DNA from: Prodigiosinella confusarubida
Lineage (GTDB): Bacteria > Pseudomonadota > Gammaproteobacteria > Enterobacterales > Enterobacteriaceae
Assembly: GCF_002847015.1 (NCBI RefSeq)
Contig: NZ_CP025085.1
Location: 3,906,001 to 3,970,000 of the forward strand
Direction of reading: 5' to 3'
Length of the DNA: 64,000 nucleotides
In this document: piece after piece, positions 53,059-60,181 of the stretch
Position numbering within the stretch: position 1 is the first letter of the stretch
How the letters are laid out: each line of letters starts with the position of its first letter
The notes under the pieces: generated by a model
Databases searched by the model: none
What the model saw: the letters and a program-made list of their open reading frames with translations, nothing else
What the model was told of the DNA's origin: nothing
Made by a program: the position numbers and the translations under genes

Positions 53059-53775
53059 TTAATCGAATAACTGATGCCAATACAACGACAACGGGATGAT
53101 GAGTATCAGTGCAGGCAGGAAATTTACCACAGCAAACGTCTTTATCTGAGCAATACGCAATCCCACAGCCATCATGATAATGCCACCGCAAGCAGAAAAA
53201 TCCCCCATCGTGATAACTGTCATCACAGGCATAATCAGTTTGGCTGAAAAGAATAACAGCATCTGGACAATGAACTGAGGAATAGCAATAGACATGACTG
53301 CCATACCCAGAGTAGTAGCAAAAATGAGTGCGGTAAAAACATCCAGTACCGATTTAATTATGAGGAGTTGGTAATCTCCCGTCAGACCTTCCGTCAATGC
53401 GCCTACCACGCCTGTACCACTGGCGCAAAACAATACAATTAACGCCGTAAAGTTCTGCGAATAGACGTCCTGAGGTAATCTATGCTCGGGTGGTGGTACA
53501 AACCGACTCAACGTCCGCTCAACAAAAATACCTGCCTTCTGTACACCCAATTCTAAACGTAACAACTCGCCGATACTCACGCCGATGACAATAGACAATG
53601 CCACTGCCGGAAGTTGTTGAACCTTCACAACTAACGTTACTCCCATGGCAATAGAAACCATTGCAAATGCAGGCGGCAAACCATCTCGCATACGTTGGGG
53701 GATAAAACGACGCAATAAAACACCTAAGCCTCCGCCAATTAAAATGGCAGAACCATTAATAAATGGACCAATCAT
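53059..53775 (-). CDS. DUF554 membrane protein, YqgA-like
   Basis: The 238-residue inner-membrane protein has about six to seven helices. It matches the DUF554 family and E. coli YqgA: IGPFINGSAILIGGGLG, LFCASGTGVVGALTEGLTGD and IKTFAVVNFLPALI. Function unknown; a transport role is assumed for the family. It lies between nadA and the TetR gene, a place where E. coli carries tRNA genes, so it may have been acquired or relocated. Codon use by eye resembles the core genes more than the GC-rich cassette to its right. Confidence 0.85.
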   Translation of the reverse strand: MIGPFINGSAILIGGGLGVLLRRFIPQRMRDGLPPAFAMVSIAMGVTLVVKVQQLPAVALSIVIGVSIGELLRLELGVQKAGIFVERTLSRFVPPPEHRLPQDVYSQNFTALIVLFCASGTGVVGALTEGLTGDYQLLIIKSVLDVFTALIFATTLGMAVMSIAIPQFIVQMLLFFSAKLIMPVMTVITMGDFSACGGIIMMAVGLRIAQIKTFAVVNFLPALILIIPLSLYWHQLFD

Positions 53776-54062: not shown

Positions 54063-54686
54063 TCACTTTGCCAGTGGGAGCGTTTCGTGCACCGCAAACG
54101 CTCTGAGATATACATTGGTCGCATCCTCAACCGCTGCACGGCGGATTGCTGTATCGGGGGCCTGGTCTAGCCCCCACAGCTGGCGCTCGACGAGGCCTGC
54201 CTCACAGAGTGCCTTGAAATACAGACCGGCTTGCCGAATGTCAGTACAACGCAGCTCGCCGCGATCCATCAGGAGTTCGATCGTTTCGCAGATGATGATC
54301 AGAGTCTTTCGGGGACCGTTCTCATAGAAGATGCGACTAAGTTGAGGATGTCTCCCGGCTTCTCCCATGATCAGTCGGTTGACCTCAATCACGTCCGAAC
54401 GCGTGACGAGGTTCAGATACGCCATACCGAGGCGATGAAGAATCTCCCTCACCGGCCCATACTGTTTCGCAGCTTCGAGTTCTTCCAGGCCCCCTTTGCC
54501 TGCTTCGTGCACAAACGTCTCGAACAGGGCTTCCTTGCTCGAAAAATAACTATACAGCGTAGCTTTGGAGGCACCAGCCCGCAATGCGATTGCTTCCATC
54601 GTAACAGCACCGAATCCTTGCTCGACGAATAACACTCCAGCAGCCTTAACAAAACTCAGTCGACGATCCTCAGTTTTCCTTCTCAC
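54063..54686 (-). CDS. TetR/AcrR-family transcriptional regulator
   Basis: The 207-residue regulator has an N-terminal helix-turn-helix (FGAVTMEAIALRAGASKATLYSYFSSKEALF, residues ~25-55), then a helical ligand-binding domain with a TetR_C_7/AefR-like pattern (MGEAGRHPQLSRIFYENGP). It is divergent from the exporter-dehydrogenase-oxygenase operon; two similar operator-like boxes lie in the gap, so it most likely represses the operon and itself and is released by the aromatic substrate or product. Ligand unproven. Confidence 0.85.
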   Translation of the reverse strand: MRRKTEDRRLSFVKAAGVLFVEQGFGAVTMEAIALRAGASKATLYSYFSSKEALFETFVHEAGKGGLEELEAAKQYGPVREILHRLGMAYLNLVTRSDVIEVNRLIMGEAGRHPQLSRIFYENGPRKTLIIICETIELLMDRGELRCTDIRQAGLYFKALCEAGLVERQLWGLDQAPDTAIRRAAVEDATNVYLRAFAVHETLPLAK

Positions 54687-54748
54687 TAATGATGACTCCT
54701 TTAGAAACTTTTGCTTACACAGCGGTGATTCTGCTTAACCTTTAATTG

Positions 54749-54763
54749 AACGATATCGTATAG
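54749..54763. promoter_or_regulatory. candidate TetR operator, box 1
   Basis: AACGATATCGTATAG contains the perfect palindrome ACGATATCGT. The same 15-mer with one change recurs at 54800. The 51-bp spacing is close to five helical turns, so both boxes face the same side of the DNA. Box 1 lies just upstream of the -35 of the exporter promoter. Confidence 0.65.
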
Positions 54764-54768
54764 AAAAC

Positions 54769-54796
54769 TTGACTTTTATGAAAGAATAAATAATAA
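54769..54796 (+). promoter_or_regulatory. candidate promoter of the exporter-oxygenase operon
   Basis: TTGACT (54769-54774) and TAATAA (54791-54796) are separated by 16 bp. Transcription would start near 54803, inside box 2, so a repressor bound there would block it. Confidence 0.5.
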
Positions 54797-54799
54797 CTA

Positions 54800-54814
54800 A
54801 ACGATGTCGTATAG
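54800..54814. promoter_or_regulatory. candidate TetR operator, box 2
   Basis: AACGATGTCGTATAG differs from box 1 at a single base. It overlaps the predicted transcription start of the plus-strand operon. Confidence 0.65.
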
Positions 54815-54922
54815 ATATAATTTGCCTATGGCTCACACATGACACAAACCCGGTCCGACGAAAGAGCTTTTCCATTTCACCGATCCTATCGTGAGATCGA
54901 CTGTGCTCGGAAGGTGCCCAAC

Positions 54923-56623
54923 ATGAATGTCCTCCGTTCGGAATTGCCTCCGATTTTCGCACTACGGACAACAACCGCTGCGCTTTTCGCTTTCGCGACC
55001 GCCTGGAACTTCGGCATCCACCATCCTTGGTGGGCAGCCATGACAGTGTGGCTTGTTGCACAGCCGACACGGGGGCTTCTGCTTGAGCGCAGCCTCGCAC
55101 GTCTTATCGGAACGATCGGCGGCGCGTTAGCCGGAGCATTGATCCTGGACCTGTTGGCGGAGAATCGGCTAGATGCGCTTGTCGCTGTCGCTACCTGGCT
55201 GGCGCTGTGTGCCGGGCTAGGTAGTATCTTTCGGCATTTTCGCAATTACGGCTTCGTATTGGCTGGTTACACGACGTCTATTATTGTCCTGTTCGGAATT
55301 GGCGAGGGGGTGTCCGATCCCGACCTCACGCTCGACCGGGTCATCTGTACAATGATCGGTATCATCTGCTCAGCGGTTTTCTCGTTTCGCGCATTGCCCG
55401 GCCGTAGCAAGGAACTGGCATGTCGGAGGACAGACGTAGTGGATCGCTGCCTCGCCTATGTTGAAGAATCCCTCCGCAAGGGCGCTATGAGTAGGTCTTG
55501 CGTTACTCTTTTTTCCGAAATCACAGCGCTCGATCGCTGCGTCGATGAATATGCCGCTGGTTCGCTCCATCGCCAGCGCGAAGCCCGACGCACACGATGC
55601 ATCTCAGGATTGCTTCTAGAATTGATCGCTCTGAGCGCCACGTCGCACGGGGGCAACCTGCCACCGGAGGTCAATGGCCCCACCGAAAAGCGTCTGGCAA
55701 TGCTGATCGCGGCAGCCAACGATTCCGATCAGTCGGCCACGGCGGACACACTCGACGAATTGCGGCAGCACCTGGCGAATGAGAGAACGTCGCCTGAGCC
55801 CTTGCAGCTCGATATCGATCCATCGTCCGTCTGGCGTGCGGCATCACGTCCCGTTGTTGCCTTGGCGATTGCCGCAATCATCTGGTGGGTGTCGGGCTGG
55901 GGGAGTGGTGCCATGATGGTGATGACGGCAGCGCTTTTCACATCGCTGTTCTCCAGCCACGACCAAGGCAATCACATGGTAATCCAAGTGCTGCTCGGCA
56001 CTCTGGCTGGCGCTATCACCGGAGCTCTGGCTCGACTCTTTCTGCTGCCCCATGCTGATGGCCTCGCAACGACATTGCTGTGTATCGCTCCCTTCCTGCT
56101 TGCCGGTGCCTGGTTAATGCAGCGTCCGGCGACGTCGAAGATGGCCATTGACCTTACCATGACCTTCCTGCTGATATCACAACCCTCTTCGCCGCCAGTT
56201 GGGGCTGCTCTCGTGCTCAACGAAGCAGCAGCGATAATTGTTGGCGTGATGATCGCCGTGGCAACGTTCTGGGCCATCCTTCCAGCCACGCCGTCTGTTC
56301 GTAGCATGCTATTAGCGAGGAGGATCGTCCGACTAACCTTGCAGCTTTCGAAAAAACGGAGCACCACGTCAGCCAAGGCCATGCAGCAAAATCTGCGCAG
56401 TGCTGTGGCAAGACTACTCTATTTTACCAAGCCGCAGAGCACGATTTTTCTGGCCGCTCAGGAATGCCTCGCAGCCGCCAGCCAAGTGCTGGCAACGAAG
56501 AGCGAAAATCAAACCCTATCAACCTCATCGCCAAACACACCAACGTACGACTCTGCCGCAAGGCAAGCTGCCGCCACGCTGGCTAACGCACTTATAAAAA
56601 ACCAAAAGGGAGAAACCTCATGA
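54923..56623 (+). CDS. FUSC-family aromatic acid exporter (AaeB-like)
   Basis: The 566-residue membrane protein has two blocks of ~5-6 helices separated by a ~150-residue cytoplasmic domain, the FUSC/AaeB/YccS layout. Conserved stretches are ALRTTTAALFAFATAW, HHPWWAAMTVWLVAQPTRG, RLIGTIGGALAG and the repeat RLFLLP region. E. coli AaeB exports p-hydroxybenzoate and related acids. The ATG at 54923 is preferred because GGAAGG precedes it; the frame is open from 54839. Its stop overlaps the ATG of the aldehyde dehydrogenase gene (ATGA). No AaeA-like adaptor is encoded here. Export of the aromatic acid made by the next two enzymes is inferred. Confidence 0.78.
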   Translation: MNVLRSELPPIFALRTTTAALFAFATAWNFGIHHPWWAAMTVWLVAQPTRGLLLERSLARLIGTIGGALAGALILDLLAENRLDALVAVATWLALCAGLGSIFRHFRNYGFVLAGYTTSIIVLFGIGEGVSDPDLTLDRVICTMIGIICSAVFSFRALPGRSKELACRRTDVVDRCLAYVEESLRKGAMSRSCVTLFSEITALDRCVDEYAAGSLHRQREARRTRCISGLLLELIALSATSHGGNLPPEVNGPTEKRLAMLIAAANDSDQSATADTLDELRQHLANERTSPEPLQLDIDPSSVWRAASRPVVALAIAAIIWWVSGWGSGAMMVMTAALFTSLFSSHDQGNHMVIQVLLGTLAGAITGALARLFLLPHADGLATTLLCIAPFLLAGAWLMQRPATSKMAIDLTMTFLLISQPSSPPVGAALVLNEAAAIIVGVMIAVATFWAILPATPSVRSMLLARRIVRLTLQLSKKRSTTSAKAMQQNLRSAVARLLYFTKPQSTIFLAAQECLAAASQVLATKSENQTLSTSSPNTPTYDSAARQAAATLANALIKNQKGETS

Positions 56624-58095
56624 GTGCTATCAATCAAGCCCAAAATAACTACACAGGCCAATATATCGCAGGGCAATGGCGGCCCGGTCGTGCCGGAACC
56701 ACGCTTCAGGACCATAATCCCTATAACCAGAAACTACTGACCGAGATTGCCTGTGCCTCGCGCGACGATCTCGATGACGCCTACCGCTCCGCTGCCGCAG
56801 TCCAACGCGACTGGGAACGGCTGATGCCAGGCGAACGGGCCGCCGTCATGTACCGTGCCGTCGACGTTCTTGACCGGCGTCATAGTGAGATCGTCGACTG
56901 GCTGATCGCCGAGTCCGGTAGCACCCGAATGAAAGCGGAGATGGAATGGGATGGGGTTCGCGCCTGTACGCTTGCGGCTGCCACCATGCCGGCCCGTATT
57001 GCTGGACGCATTCTGCCGATTGACGTTCCCGGCAAGGAAAGCCGCGTCTACCGCCGTCCTCTTGGCGTCATCGGCGTCATCAGCCCCTGGAACTTCCCTA
57101 TGCATCTATCCAACCGGACGATCGCACCTGCACTCGCTATCGGCAACAGCGTTGTGGTCAAGCCGGCGGATGACACGCCGATCACCGGCGGCCTGCTGCT
57201 CGCGAGCATCTACGAAGAAGCGGGCCTACCTCCCGGCCTGCTGAATGCGGTGGTTGGCGAAGTCAGCGAGATCGGTGATGCCTTTACGCTTCACCCTATC
57301 CCGAAATTCATCTCCTTCACAGGATCCACGCGCGTTGGCCGCCATATCGGCGAACTGGCAATGACGGGTCCGATGTTAAAGCGGGTTGCACTTGAACTCG
57401 GCGGCAATGCGCCCTGCGTGGTGCTGGATGATGCTAATCTCGACCGTGCGGTTAGTGGGGCGATCGTGGGTCGTTTTCTACATCAGGGCCAGATCTGCAT
57501 GAGCAGCAACCGAATTATCATTGAAAATGGTCTTTATGACCGTTTTGTCGACGCCTTCGTAGAGCGGGCACGCAAGCTCAAGGTCGGCGATCCCAATGAA
57601 GCCGATACTGTGATCGGGCCGTTGATCAATGAGAAACAGTTCAAGGCCGCACTGAAGCATATTGAAAAGGCACGCACTATCGGCACTCGCCAGCTTCTCG
57701 GGGAAGAGCCGTCGGGACTGGTGCTACCGCCGCAGGTCTTCGCCGATGTCGCCAACGACTCGGATCTCGCCCAGACCGAATTGTTTAGCCCAATCGCCCC
57801 GCTCATCCGAGCAAGGGACGAAGCTGATGCCCTGCGTATAGCCAACCAGACAGAGTTCGGACTGTCGAGCTCGGTGTTCACCGAGGATACGGCGCGGGGC
57901 CTTCGTTTCGCCCAAGGCATCGAGGCGGGCATGACCCACATCAACGACATTTCTCCCAACGACGATCCCAACACGATGTTCGGTGGAGAGAAGAACAGCG
58001 GCCTCGGCCGCTTCAACAGCGACTGGATCATCCAGGAATTGACGACCGACCACTGGATCAGCGTGCAGCATGAACCGCGCGCCTATCCCTTCTGA
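56620..58095 (+). CDS. NAD(P)-dependent aldehyde dehydrogenase (benzaldehyde/vanillin type)
   Basis: The 491-residue protein belongs to the ALDH superfamily and oxidises an aldehyde to its acid. Catalytic Glu259 lies in LELGGNAP and the nucleophile Cys293 in GQICMSSNR; the cofactor site has ISPWNFPMHLSNRTIAPALA, KPADDTP and FTGSTRVGR. The overall pattern resembles vanillin/benzaldehyde dehydrogenases. It is coupled to the exporter gene by a four-base overlap and is followed after 48 bp by the carotenoid-oxygenase-type gene, which would supply its aldehyde substrate. Genes of the cassette are GC-rich compared with nadA and the tol genes. Confidence 0.88.
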   Translation: MSAINQAQNNYTGQYIAGQWRPGRAGTTLQDHNPYNQKLLTEIACASRDDLDDAYRSAAAVQRDWERLMPGERAAVMYRAVDVLDRRHSEIVDWLIAESGSTRMKAEMEWDGVRACTLAAATMPARIAGRILPIDVPGKESRVYRRPLGVIGVISPWNFPMHLSNRTIAPALAIGNSVVVKPADDTPITGGLLLASIYEEAGLPPGLLNAVVGEVSEIGDAFTLHPIPKFISFTGSTRVGRHIGELAMTGPMLKRVALELGGNAPCVVLDDANLDRAVSGAIVGRFLHQGQICMSSNRIIIENGLYDRFVDAFVERARKLKVGDPNEADTVIGPLINEKQFKAALKHIEKARTIGTRQLLGEEPSGLVLPPQVFADVANDSDLAQTELFSPIAPLIRARDEADALRIANQTEFGLSSSVFTEDTARGLRFAQGIEAGMTHINDISPNDDPNTMFGGEKNSGLGRFNSDWIIQELTTDHWISVQHEPRAYPF

Positions 58096-58143
58096 GTACC
58101 ACCTGGTCAGCAATTCATCGCAAAAAACTGAGGAGCAATGATC

Positions 58144-59634
58144 ATGAGTCTGAAATTTCCTGAAACGCCGGAGTTCACCGGCCTGTACAAACCGAGCCGT
58201 GTCGAGACGCAGGTCTTCGATCTGGAGATCGAAGGCGAGGTTCCGCCCCAGATCAAAGGCACCTTCTTTCAGGTCTCGCCGGATTCCTACTATCCGCCGA
58301 TGCAGGGCAAGGACATCTTCTTCAACGGTGACGGGCTTGTATCAGCCTTCAAATTCGAGAACGGCCACGTCAGCCTGCGGCGCCGTTACGTTCAGACTGA
58401 CAGGCTGAAGGCACAATGGAAGGAGCGACGTTCCCTCAACGGCATCTACCGCAACATCTACACCAACGATCCGCTGGCCGCCGAGAACAACACCACGGCC
58501 AACACTACCGTGCTGTTCCATGCTGGCGTCTTGTTGGCAATGAAGGAGGACGCACTGCCTTACGCGCTCAATCCTAATACATTGGAAACGCTTGGCGTCT
58601 GGGACTTCAACGGACAGATCACATCGGCCACCTTCACCGCGCATCCCAAGATCGATCCCGACAATGGCGACCTTCTGTGCTTCGCCTATGAAGCCAAGGG
58701 CGATGGTACATCGGACATTGCCTATTTCGAGATCGATGCCAGCGGTAAGCTGAAAAAAGAAATCTGGTTCAAGGGCCCCTATGCAGCGATGATTCATGAC
58801 TTCGCCGTCACCGCCCACCACGTCGTCTTCCCACTTATCCCGCTGACCGCCGATGTCGACCGGATGAAAGCGGGCGGTCAACATTTCGAATGGCAGCCGG
58901 ACCTGCCACAACTCTTCGGTGTCCTACCGCGTGACGGCAGCAGTGAGGATGTTCTGTGGTTCCACGGACCGAAGGATGGCTTTCAGGGGCATACCCTCAA
59001 CGCTTATGAGGAGGATGGTTTACTGCGCGTCGACATGCCGGTAACGAACGGCAACGTCTTCTATTTCTTCCCACAGGCCGACGGTTCCGTTCCTCTACCG
59101 GAGACCCTGAGTTCACAGCTCATGCGATGGACGTTCAATCTCAACGGCCCGGGAGAATCAGAGGCTGGCCAACAGACTCTCCAGCCACAACCTCTCACGT
59201 CCTTCCCTTGCGAGTTCCCCCGCTGTGATGAACGTTTCACCGGCAAGCCATATGAGCACGGTTTTGTCCTTGCCTTCGACCCGGCTCTGCCCTTCGACGA
59301 GACACTGGGCGAACGGCCATTTCAGTTCTTCAACCAGCTTGCTCATGTCAACGTAAGGACCGGCGAGACTGAAACCTGGTATCCCGGTAATGCGCAGTGC
59401 TTTCAGGAACCGATTTTCGTTCCCCGTTCACCAGATGCGCCCGAGGGCGACGGCTATGTGATCGCGTTGCTAAATCATCTCCACGGCAACGATACCGAGT
59501 TGGTGGTGCTGGACTCGCTGAAGATGGCTACCGGCCCTGTCGCCCGCATCAAGGTTCCGTTCCGTCTACGCATGTCACTGCATGGCAACTGGACCCCGGC
59601 AGAGGCGTTGAAGGGTACCCAATCCGGCCGGTAA
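58144..59634 (+). CDS. carotenoid-oxygenase family enzyme, lignostilbene dioxygenase-like
   Basis: This 496-residue non-haem iron enzyme cleaves a conjugated C=C bond with O2 to give two carbonyl products. The four iron-ligand histidines are visible: His167 (FTAHPKID), His218 (MIHDFAVT), His283 (FQGHTLNA) and His480 (SLHGNW). The FNGDGLVSAFKF motif of the β-propeller is also present. Length and motifs resemble bacterial lignostilbene dioxygenases and isoeugenol monooxygenase more than carotenoid or retinal enzymes; no signal peptide. The start at 58144 (MSLKFPETP) has AGGAG eight bases upstream; the ATG at 58138 is too close to it. Third gene of the operon; the coupled ALDH implies an aromatic aldehyde product such as vanillin or p-hydroxybenzaldehyde. 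Confidence 0.87.
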   Translation: MSLKFPETPEFTGLYKPSRVETQVFDLEIEGEVPPQIKGTFFQVSPDSYYPPMQGKDIFFNGDGLVSAFKFENGHVSLRRRYVQTDRLKAQWKERRSLNGIYRNIYTNDPLAAENNTTANTTVLFHAGVLLAMKEDALPYALNPNTLETLGVWDFNGQITSATFTAHPKIDPDNGDLLCFAYEAKGDGTSDIAYFEIDASGKLKKEIWFKGPYAAMIHDFAVTAHHVVFPLIPLTADVDRMKAGGQHFEWQPDLPQLFGVLPRDGSSEDVLWFHGPKDGFQGHTLNAYEEDGLLRVDMPVTNGNVFYFFPQADGSVPLPETLSSQLMRWTFNLNGPGESEAGQQTLQPQPLTSFPCEFPRCDERFTGKPYEHGFVLAFDPALPFDETLGERPFQFFNQLAHVNVRTGETETWYPGNAQCFQEPIFVPRSPDAPEGDGYVIALLNHLHGNDTELVVLDSLKMATGPVARIKVPFRLRMSLHGNWTPAEALKGTQSGR

Positions 59635-59761
59635 CTCAGCAATTAGACACAGCCAGAGGTAGATCACGCATGGCTGGCATCGACACAGACTCTCCTTGTA
59701 AGAGGATTGTTGTGAGCGGTGCCAGTTTTACAGGACTGCAATTCGTGCGCAGTTCCACCAT

Positions 59762-59836
59762 CACGATATGTGCAACATGCCGTTTTGGTGGAATAAAGAC
59801 AATCAGCGTAATTTGAAATGGTGGGTCGTGCGGGAT
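59762..59836. repeat. 75-bp direct repeat, copy 1, with tRNA-Lys 3' end
   Basis: This copy is identical by eye to 59929-60003 at an offset of 167 bp. Its last 18 bases are the CCA end, acceptor strand and part of the T stem of tRNA-Lys on the minus strand; the first 57 are the sequence downstream of the intact tRNA. It abuts the GC-rich cassette side and looks like a duplicated integration target or a leftover of a lost tRNA copy. Confidence 0.8.
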
Positions 59837-59928
59837 GATTCGGCCTTTGGCCTCACCCTCCGGGTCAACGCTATCGCGTTGTTGTCTCGCTTTCGCTCGG
59901 CTCGAACCTGAACGCAGGTTCTCACCCA
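59837..59928. repeat. 92-bp spacer with purine-rich tRNA-adjacent element
   Basis: Between the two direct repeats lies a segment that on the minus strand reads GAGCCGAGCGAAAGCGAGAC followed by GCGATAGCGTTGACCCGGAG, with an inverted pair GAACCTG/CAGGTTC near its end. I recall similar elements after tRNA genes in Pectobacteriaceae, where they cause spurious protein predictions. Not coding. The gap 59635-59761 holds nothing recognisable. Confidence 0.4.
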
Positions 59929-60003
59929 CACGATATGTGCAACATGCCGTTTTGGTGGAATAAAGACAATCAGCGTAATTTGAAATGGTGGGTCGTGCGG
60001 GAT
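59929..60003. repeat. 75-bp direct repeat, copy 2, overlapping intact tRNA-Lys
   Basis: Second copy of the repeat; its right 18 bases are the 3' end of the intact tRNA-Lys at 59986-60061. Confidence 0.8.
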
Positions 60004-60061
60004 TCGAACCTGCGACCAATTGATTAAAAGTCAACTGCTCTACCAACTGAGCTAACGACCC
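59986..60061 (-). tRNA. tRNA-Lys (anticodon UUU), copy 1
   Basis: This is a 76-nt gene with encoded CCA. The minus strand starts GGGTCGTTAGCTCAGTTGGT, has anticodon TTT in GACTTTTAATC, T loop GGTTCGAATCC and ends CACGACCCACCA. It is identical to copy 2, 44 bp upstream; the two are probably transcribed together. In E. coli a lys/val tRNA operon occupies the same place between nadA and cpoB. Confidence 0.97.
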
Positions 60062-60105
60062 GCAACGCGGAATTCTACAAAGAAAAAATAGTATTTCTTG
60101 AAATT

Positions 60106-60181
60106 TGGTGGGTCGTGCGGGATTCGAACCTGCGACCAATTGATTAAAAGTCAACTGCTCTACCAACTGAGCTAACGACCC
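60106..60181 (-). tRNA. tRNA-Lys (anticodon UUU), copy 2
   Basis: Same 76-nt sequence and structure as the copy at 59986-60061, including the encoded CCA. It is the promoter-proximal copy of the pair. Confidence 0.97.

What the first reader, a model, noticed from the sequence alone, without database searches (positions are those of the whole stretch)
54063..59634. Self-contained plant-phenolic cassette: TetR regulator, FUSC exporter, aldehyde dehydrogenase, lignostilbene-dioxygenase-like enzyme
Seen: three plus-strand genes close together (a 4-bp overlap, then 48 bp) and a divergent TetR gene with two near-identical operator-like boxes. The oxygenase keeps all four iron-binding histidines and the dehydrogenase its Glu/Cys pair. 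Known: lignostilbene dioxygenases and isoeugenol monooxygenase give aromatic aldehydes, ALDHs oxidise these, and AaeB-type FUSC proteins export aromatic acids. Inference: the cassette detoxifies a host stilbenoid or phenylpropanoid by cleaving it, oxidising the aldehyde and pumping out the acid, rather than catabolising it, because no ring-cleavage or demethylase genes are present. Linking oxygenase and exporter in one operon is a combination I do not recall as described.
Basis: partly seen in the sequence, partly recalled or inferred. Interest (0 to 1): 0.78.

Follow-up and report, generated by a model that had tools for sequence, protein, structure and literature searches.

The report
Mobile stilbene-cleaving and export operon
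A small set of four genes, apparently acquired from soil bacteria, probably senses a plant phenolic defence compound of the resveratrol type, cuts it in two, oxidises the pieces and pumps them out; each part is of a known kind, but I found no description of the combination or of its shared DNA switch.

Summary
54063-59634 carries a divergent TetR gene and a FUSC-ALDH-oxygenase operon with the stated overlap and gap. The oxygenase belongs to the lignostilbene dioxygenase (LSD) branch; its nearest solved relative, PbLSD, cleaves resveratrol. The ALDH is nearest to 4-hydroxybenzaldehyde dehydrogenase, fitting an expected product.

The unit recurs: 8 of 23 LSD loci hold all four genes in this order, in Rhizobium, Novosphingobium, Xanthomonas, Hafnia and a Rahnella plasmid. 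The operator boxes look real: a pair of palindrome-like boxes 49-52 bp apart lies in 16 of 19 TetR-side gaps. The cassette was acquired: its LSD nests among alphaproteobacterial ones, its GC is high, three family relatives show the site without it, and a same-species genome keeps only a deleted remnant.

In the loci seen, FUSC (10 of 23) and a ring-cleavage set (6 of 23) never occur together. The host has a separate AaeA-AaeB pump; the cassette FUSC is not AaeB proper.

Best reading: an inducible, mobile cleave-oxidise-export cassette for a 4-hydroxystilbene or related phenolic. Substrate and export are inferred.

The parts
54063..54686 (-). TetR/AcrR-family regulator (AefR-like C-terminal domain, TetR_C_7), GTG start
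   Evidence: Pfam TetR_N 60.7 bits, TetR_C_7 86.7 bits; homologues beside LSD in 18 of 22 other LSD loci at 41-83% identity
54746..54763 (.). operator box 1 (TTGAACGATATCGTATAG; core ACGATATCGT is a perfect palindrome)
   Evidence: 3 mismatches to the 18-bp consensus; 0 of 300 random stretches of the same 18-kb piece as good
54797..54814 (.). operator box 2 (CTAAACGATGTCGTATAG), 51 bp after box 1
   Evidence: 4 mismatches; best pair at 49-52 bp spacing in 16 of 19 gaps when 40-60 bp was allowed, 0 of 300 shuffles each
54816..54821 (+). possible -10 element (TATAAT) abutting operator box 2
   Evidence: sequence only; inference, since the promoter scan did not list it
54839..56623 (+). FUSC-family membrane protein, probable exporter, 594 aa; the start may be the in-frame ATG at 54923, since most homologues align only from residue 30-61 on
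   Evidence: PF04632 309.8 bits; AaeB model 78.7 bits, cut-off 870; homologue spans
56620..58095 (+). aldehyde dehydrogenase, 491 aa, Glu259/Cys293
   Evidence: Aldedh 489 bits; nearest solved chains are 4-hydroxybenzaldehyde dehydrogenase, 659.5 bits; vanillin dehydrogenase 299.3 bits
58138..59634 (+). lignostilbene-dioxygenase-type non-haem iron oxygenase (likely start 58144)
   Evidence: nearest solved chain 5v2d PbLSD 775 bits, LsdA 444, apocarotenoid oxygenase about 151; tree
59756..59836 (.). 81-nt repeat ending in 18 nt of a tRNA-Lys 3' end; probable relic of a tandem tRNA-Lys array at the insertion site
   Evidence: 98% copy at 59923-60003; relatives have tRNA-Lys arrays here
59986..60181 (-). 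two tRNA-Lys genes bounding the acquired segment
   Evidence: ARAGORN; nadA - tRNA-Lys array - ybgF order without cassette in three same-family relatives

Best explanation
A horizontally acquired, inducible cassette against a plant phenolic alkene, most likely a 4-hydroxystilbene of the resveratrol type. The TetR protein represses both directions from twin palindromic operators and is released by the phenolic. The oxygenase cuts the central double bond with O2 into two aromatic aldehydes, for resveratrol 4-hydroxy- and 3,5-dihydroxybenzaldehyde. The ALDH oxidises these to the less reactive acids, and the FUSC protein exports the acids. Shown by sequence: gene families, catalytic residues, operon layout, conserved operator pair, conserved four-gene linkage, horizontal origin. 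Inferred: substrate, inducer, TetR binding, and direction and cargo of the FUSC protein.
For: LSD-branch placement and the residues that hold a 4-hydroxyphenyl ring (role of those residues in passages of PMC8191317, and PMC6097328). PbLSD makes 4-hydroxy- and 3,5-dihydroxybenzaldehyde from resveratrol (PMC6097328, part 1 of 3 of the results section). ALDH nearest to 4-hydroxybenzaldehyde dehydrogenase. All four genes in order in 8 of 23 LSD loci, across Alpha- and Gammaproteobacteria; in the seven besides the window the matched stretches are open apart from one terminal stop. Operator pair in 16 of 19 gaps. FUSC in 10 of 23 loci and the ring-cleavage set in 6 of 23, never together. No pobA over cut-off and no intradiol dioxygenase in this host. 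PMC8191317 notes that LSDs have been proposed to protect against stilbenoid phytoalexins (passage). Acquisition.
Against: PbLSD itself groups with Pseudomonas loci that carry the ring-cleavage set, not with the FUSC clade, so carrying its substrate over is inference. The host already has an AaeA-AaeB pump. FUSC is missing or broken in 3 of the 12 loci of the clade: L012, L025, L024. Four of five other FUSC-cassette hosts searched have pobA. The flanks held around some FUSC loci are short (376 bp beyond LSD in L008), and looked only for homologues of the reference ring-cleavage proteins. The same-species genome keeps only a remnant, so the cassette is dispensable there.
Confidence: 0.58

Rival explanations
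1. Same logic, different substrate: a phenylpropene or vinylphenol (isoeugenol, 4-vinylguaiacol, 4-vinylphenol) is cut to vanillin or 4-hydroxybenzaldehyde, oxidised and exported.
For: Such enzymes lie in the same oxygenase family (recalled), and the conserved Tyr/Lys pair binds the 4-hydroxyl group (passage). The ALDH is of a benzaldehyde type.
Against: The nearest characterised enzyme cleaves resveratrol. The ALDH is much nearer to 4-hydroxybenzaldehyde (659.5 bits) than to vanillin dehydrogenase (299.3 bits). No isoeugenol enzyme was placed in the tree, so this rival is not well tested.
Confidence: 0.18
2. A growth pathway rather than detoxification: cleavage and oxidation feed acids into ring-cleavage routes elsewhere in the genome, and FUSC only relieves overflow.
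For: Relatives of the oxygenase sit in catabolic clusters with flavin monooxygenase, VOC dioxygenase, FAH hydrolase and IclR in 6 of 23 loci. pobA over cut-off in 4 of 5 other FUSC-cassette hosts searched. This host has a gallate dioxygenase and mhp-type genes.
Against: None of the 10 FUSC loci carries a homologue of the ring-cleavage set within the DNA held. This host has no pobA over cut-off and no intradiol dioxygenase, so the usual route for 4-hydroxybenzoate is missing.
Confidence: 0.19
3. A carotenoid or apocarotenoid cleavage operon.
For: RPE65 family membership; weak in vivo loss of lycopene with PbLSD.
Against: LSD models 550 and 470 bits against 221 for the carotenoid model; apocarotenoid oxygenase about 151 bits; no phytoene-synthase-family (PF00494) match in the genome.
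Confidence: 0.03

Closest known systems
PbLSD of Pseudomonas brassicacearum (PDB 5V2D, PMC6097328)
   Same: Closest solved oxygenase (775 bits); same ring-holding residues and six shared histidines
   Different: Groups with Pseudomonas loci L020-L022, which carry flavin monooxygenase, VOC dioxygenase, FAH and IclR and no FUSC or adjacent TetR; the P. brassicacearum locus itself was not seen
AaeXAB hydroxybenzoate efflux pump
   Same: Cassette FUSC shares Pfam PF04632 with AaeB
   Different: Far below the AaeB cut-off, shorter, no AaeA or AaeX beside it; the host has its own AaeA-AaeB elsewhere
Lignostilbene and resveratrol catabolism (sphingomonads; an Acinetobacter growing on resveratrol)
   Same: LSD cleavage giving aromatic aldehydes (PMC8191317 and PMC12997858, passages)
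   Different: Those serve growth; here an exporter-family gene stands where other LSD loci have ring-cleavage genes
4-hydroxybenzaldehyde dehydrogenase (PDB 9jw2 series)
   Same: Nearest solved ALDH, 659.5 bits over residues 7-491
   Different: Genomic context not examined; equivalence of substrate not tested

Membership tests
Lignostilbene-alpha,beta-dioxygenase (LSD) family | RPE65/CCD domain with four iron-binding histidines | tested here: met
   PF03055 436.8 bits; six histidines align in all four compared sequences, among them His169/220/285/482; which four bind iron is recalled
Lignostilbene-alpha,beta-dioxygenase (LSD) family | Phe/Tyr/Lys set that holds the 4-hydroxyphenyl ring (LsdA Phe59, Tyr101, Lys134) | tested here: met
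   Phe62, Tyr104, Lys136
Lignostilbene-alpha,beta-dioxygenase (LSD) family | Passes the curated NCBIfam equivalog cut-offs (LSD-alpha 800, NOV2 650) | tested here: not met
   549.8 and 470.2 bits: same branch, but not the equivalog of LSD-alpha or NOV2
Lignostilbene-alpha,beta-dioxygenase (LSD) family | Cleaves a 4-hydroxystilbene with O2 | not testable with these tools
   needs enzyme assay
AaeB hydroxybenzoate efflux subunit | Passes the AaeB equivalog cut-off (870 bits) | tested here: not met
   78.7 bits; the host's other FUSC at 164635-166560 scores 1147.6
AaeB hydroxybenzoate efflux subunit | Encoded with the AaeA adaptor | tested here: not met
   no adaptor among the four cassette genes; AaeA lies beside the other FUSC gene
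FUSC / aromatic acid exporter superfamily | PF04632 over curated cut-off | tested here: met
   309.8 against 30.9 bits
4-hydroxybenzaldehyde dehydrogenase type ALDH | Closest relatives among solved ALDHs are 4-hydroxybenzaldehyde dehydrogenases | tested here: met
   647-660 bits, with one chain named only 'Aldehyde dehydrogenase' (8zcx) among them at 655; next a benzaldehyde dehydrogenase at 527 (best 60 of 155 shown)
4-hydroxybenzaldehyde dehydrogenase type ALDH | Oxidises 4-hydroxybenzaldehyde | not testable with these tools
   needs enzyme assay
TetR-family local repressor | Divergent gene with conserved palindromic operators in the shared gap | tested here: met
   16 of 19 gaps, spacing 49-52 bp, 0 of 300 shuffles each; consensus not independent of the set
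TetR-family local repressor | Binds the operator and is released by ligand | not testable with these tools
   needs gel shift or reporter

The most novel reading that the evidence does not exclude
A mobile module that disarms plant stilbene defences by sensing, cutting, oxidising and exporting rather than eating them. It arose within one LSD clade by pairing the enzyme with a FUSC exporter under a twin-operator TetR switch, and spreads, partly on plasmids, between plant- and soil-associated Alpha- and Gammaproteobacteria.
Probability: 0.38. Interest if true: 0.66.

Novelty: new variant of a known kind. Interest (0 to 1): 0.5.

Why it matters
LSDs have been given catabolic and protective roles, but the protective role in plant pathogens is called only proposed in the passage read (PMC8191317). 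A self-regulated unit that pairs the enzyme with an exporter-family gene and carries no ring-cleavage genes makes the protective role directly testable, in a strain much used in the laboratory. The operator pair gives a sequence tag for finding more such loci and could serve in a stilbenoid biosensor. The oxygenase-ALDH pair may also be of use for making or removing aromatic aldehydes.

Tried and rejected
Carotenoid substrate: rejected on scores and on the absence of a phytoene-synthase-family match. An att-site reading of the 81-nt repeat beside tRNA-Lys: set aside, because relatives carry tandem tRNA-Lys arrays there, so a truncated array copy explains it as well. AaeB identity of the FUSC: rejected. 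The window-based argument that the host cannot degrade aromatics: weakened by genome searches. A Rhizobiaceae-wide count was not made, because the search accepts only G handles as centre. The class-wide search (369 genomes) found 4 other genomes, with distant homologues (33-42% identity) at E up to 1e-50, so it did not enlarge the linkage count. Plasmid searches with TetR and FUSC added one new informative locus, the Shinella plasmid (of the listed rows only H23 was opened). The sigma-70 and terminator scans found no more than shuffles give. Rank correlation of identities among the four genes over 8 loci was positive for all six pairs, but only 3 of 6 had p below 0.05, and one ALDH value rests on a partial gene. 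Structure prediction and fold search were not used. PMC6097328 was read as outline, part 1 of 3 of the results section, and passages.
Full report
WHAT IS THERE. One search gives TetR 54063-54686 (-), FUSC 54839-56623 (+), ALDH 56620-58095 (+) and oxygenase 58138-59634 (+). FUSC and ALDH overlap by ATGA. Pfam assigns TetR_N/TetR_C_7, FUSC, Aldedh and RPE65. Six histidines are shared with PbLSD, LsdA and CAO1; the four iron ligands among them (169/220/285/482) are named from recall. Ring-holding Phe62/Tyr104/Lys136 and ALDH Glu259/Cys293 are in place.

THE ENZYMES. Among solved structures the oxygenase is nearest to PbLSD 5V2D (775 bits), then LsdA (444) and CAO1 (423); apocarotenoid oxygenase follows at about 151 (that 5V2D is PbLSD; CAO1 is listed as 'Carotenoid oxygenase 1'). 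NCBIfam gives LSD-alpha 549.8 and NOV2 470.2, both below their equivalog cut-offs, and a carotenoid model 220.8. PbLSD turns resveratrol into 3,5-dihydroxy- and 4-hydroxybenzaldehyde (PMC6097328, part 1 of 3 of the results section). The ALDH is nearest to 4-hydroxybenzaldehyde dehydrogenase (659.5 bits); vanillin dehydrogenase scores 299.3 (best 60 of 155 shown). The FUSC is a member of PF04632 but not AaeB: 78.7 bits against a cut-off of 870. The host has an AaeA-AaeB pair at equivalog level elsewhere.

LINKAGE. The locus set is the window, the 16 loci of named genomes (found by exact peptide patterns, so near relatives only) and 6 plasmid loci, the six best of 95 plasmid records with a match: 23 in all. 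G001 (a remnant), L033 (apparently the same genome as L018, with identical coordinates and contig length) and distant homologues are not counted. All four genes in this order: window, L009, L010, L011, L013, L014, L023, L028, which is 8 of 23; in the seven besides the window the matched stretches are open apart from a stop at the very end of L013's TetR. L008 has the order with a deleted ALDH middle, and L024 with a truncated FUSC. FUSC in any state: 10 of 23. TetR beside LSD: 19 of 23, window included (exceptions L020, L021, L022, L026; L022 has a distant one 7 kb away). Homologues of a ring-cleavage set (flavin monooxygenase, VOC dioxygenase, FAH hydrolase, IclR) lie near LSD in L019, L020, L021, L022, L027 and L034, which is 6 of 23; L018 has MFS, fumarase and FAH genes; L012 has an IclR hit only. 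FUSC and the ring-cleavage set occur together in 0 of 23. Cautions: the flanks held differ (only 376 bp beyond LSD in L008); one search looked for homologues of 11 reference proteins, not for every kind of ring cleavage; Pfam on 10 flanking ORFs of four FUSC loci found none either, though L014 has a mandelate racemase/muconate lactonizing-type enzyme nearby and 3 of the 10 ORFs had no match; related loci are not independent.

TREE. In a 30-row tree (27 window and locus rows, 3 solved enzymes) the window's oxygenase lies in a 100/100 clade of six, the other five alphaproteobacterial, and in a 98/97 clade of twelve that holds all ten FUSC loci plus L012 and L025, which lack FUSC. The FUSC label needs 3 changes against a shuffled mean of 8.5; it counts L024, whose FUSC is broken. 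PbLSD groups with the Pseudomonas ring-cleavage loci at 100/100. Outgroup branches are long and their order is unsure.

OPERATORS. An 18-bp palindromic consensus, made by eye from these loci, was scored in the TetR-side gap of 19 loci. With spacings of 40-60 bp allowed, the best pair was 49-52 bp apart in 16 of 19. In these 16 the pair at 49-52 bp beat all 300 dinucleotide shuffles and every other spacing tried between 20 and 119 bp (47-54 left out). The exceptions L017, L027 and L034 have TetR proteins only 41-44% identical to this one. Single boxes are less telling: against random stretches of the same locus 13 of 19 gaps had 0 of 300 as good, L024, L025 and L028 had 3 to 7, and L017, L027 and L034 had 52 to 183; the 64-kb window has 8 other sites within 5 mismatches. 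Because the consensus came from part of the set, the conserved spacing is the more telling part. A Shinella plasmid with a 63% identical TetR but no LSD match carries a similar pair 52 bp apart (6 and 2 mismatches, no shuffle control), near gentisate and 3-hydroxybenzoate genes. In the window box 2 abuts a TATAAT at 54816-54821, as repression would need; this is inference, since the promoter scan did not list it.

ACQUISITION. Cassette GC is 56.4% against 49.1% before and 47.3% after; GC3 is 0.57-0.69 against 0.43-0.48 in five neighbouring genes. Five relatives were fetched. In the three of the same family (G002, G003, G005) nadA, a tRNA-Lys array and ybgF follow one another without the cassette or the DUF554 gene; G528 of the same order shows the same order of genes with a more diverged ybgF; G532 had no ybgF in the stretch and is uninformative. 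The same-species genome G001 has the site and the flanks (97.2-97.6% identical) but only pieces matching window 54504-54550, 56227-56575, 58233-58483 and from 58891 on, so its cassette is broken by deletions. In the family search 4 of 149 genomes had any match: this one, the remnant, a 71% homologue and a 31% match with a stop. In the class search 5 of 369 had a match at E up to 1e-50, the window's genome among them. The cassette is thus patchy and mobile, in part plasmid-borne.

EXPORT OR CATABOLISM. The window's genome has no PobA over cut-off and no intradiol dioxygenase match. It does have three LigB-family genes: a gallate dioxygenase (775.5 bits, cut-off 412), a 4,5-DOPA dioxygenase (500, cut-off 233), and one, not scanned further, between an mhp-type hydroxylase (1030 bits, cut-off 966) and a hydrolase below its best model's cut-off. 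Of eleven other genomes, 7 have PobA over cut-off (L019's is just under it). Of the nine other FUSC loci five had their genomes searched: L009, L011, L013 and L014 have PobA, Hafnia L023 does not. Export as an alternative to degradation is therefore plausible here and in Hafnia, and less compelling elsewhere.

MECHANISM. Shown: families, residues, layout, operator pair, linkage, acquisition. Inferred: a 4-hydroxystilbene as substrate and inducer, acids as FUSC cargo. Rivals are given with their confidence.

LITERATURE. Ten searches of the held library (one search was about the host only) returned no listed title or abstract opening that describes this gene combination; 'lignostilbene' with 'fusaric acid resistance' gave 0 papers. 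Several listings were capped far below the number of hits (for example 20 of 238 and 5 of 8,209), and most subscription papers are not held. PMC8191317 and PMC12997858 were read as passages only; PMC11778176 was seen only as a listing.

VERDICT. A real, conserved, horizontally moved operon of known parts in a combination for which I found no description: a new variant of a known kind.

Noticed in passing
59756-59836 and 59923-60003: 81-nt direct repeat (98%) that carries 18 nt of the tRNA-Lys 3' end, probably a relic of a tandem tRNA-Lys array; also present in the same-species genome.
   Followed up: partly
53059-53775 (-): A DUF554-like membrane protein gene (name recalled from the sequence, not searched) lies between nadA and the cassette. 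It is kept in the same-species genome and had no match at the site in three same-family relatives.
   Followed up: partly
L039 1042-2304 (-), host genome near 4470011: Gallate dioxygenase over the equivalog cut-off; with the mhp-type genes it shows that the host has aromatic ring cleavage.
   Followed up: partly
L059 8851-8920 and 8998-9645: Shinella plasmid: TetR 63% identical to this one with an operator-like pair 52 bp apart, but no LSD match; near gentisate 1,2-dioxygenase and 3-hydroxybenzoate 6-monooxygenase genes.
   Followed up: partly
L024 7431-8482 against L028 6516-8482: Two Rahnella aceris plasmids carry the cassette; in one the FUSC region is about 900 bp shorter and the FUSC frame is broken while TetR, ALDH and LSD stay open, so FUSC can be lost first.
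   Followed up: partly
L008 7249-7968: Azospirillaceae MAG copy with ALDH residues of about 60-306 missing; could be a deletion or an assembly fault.
   Followed up: no
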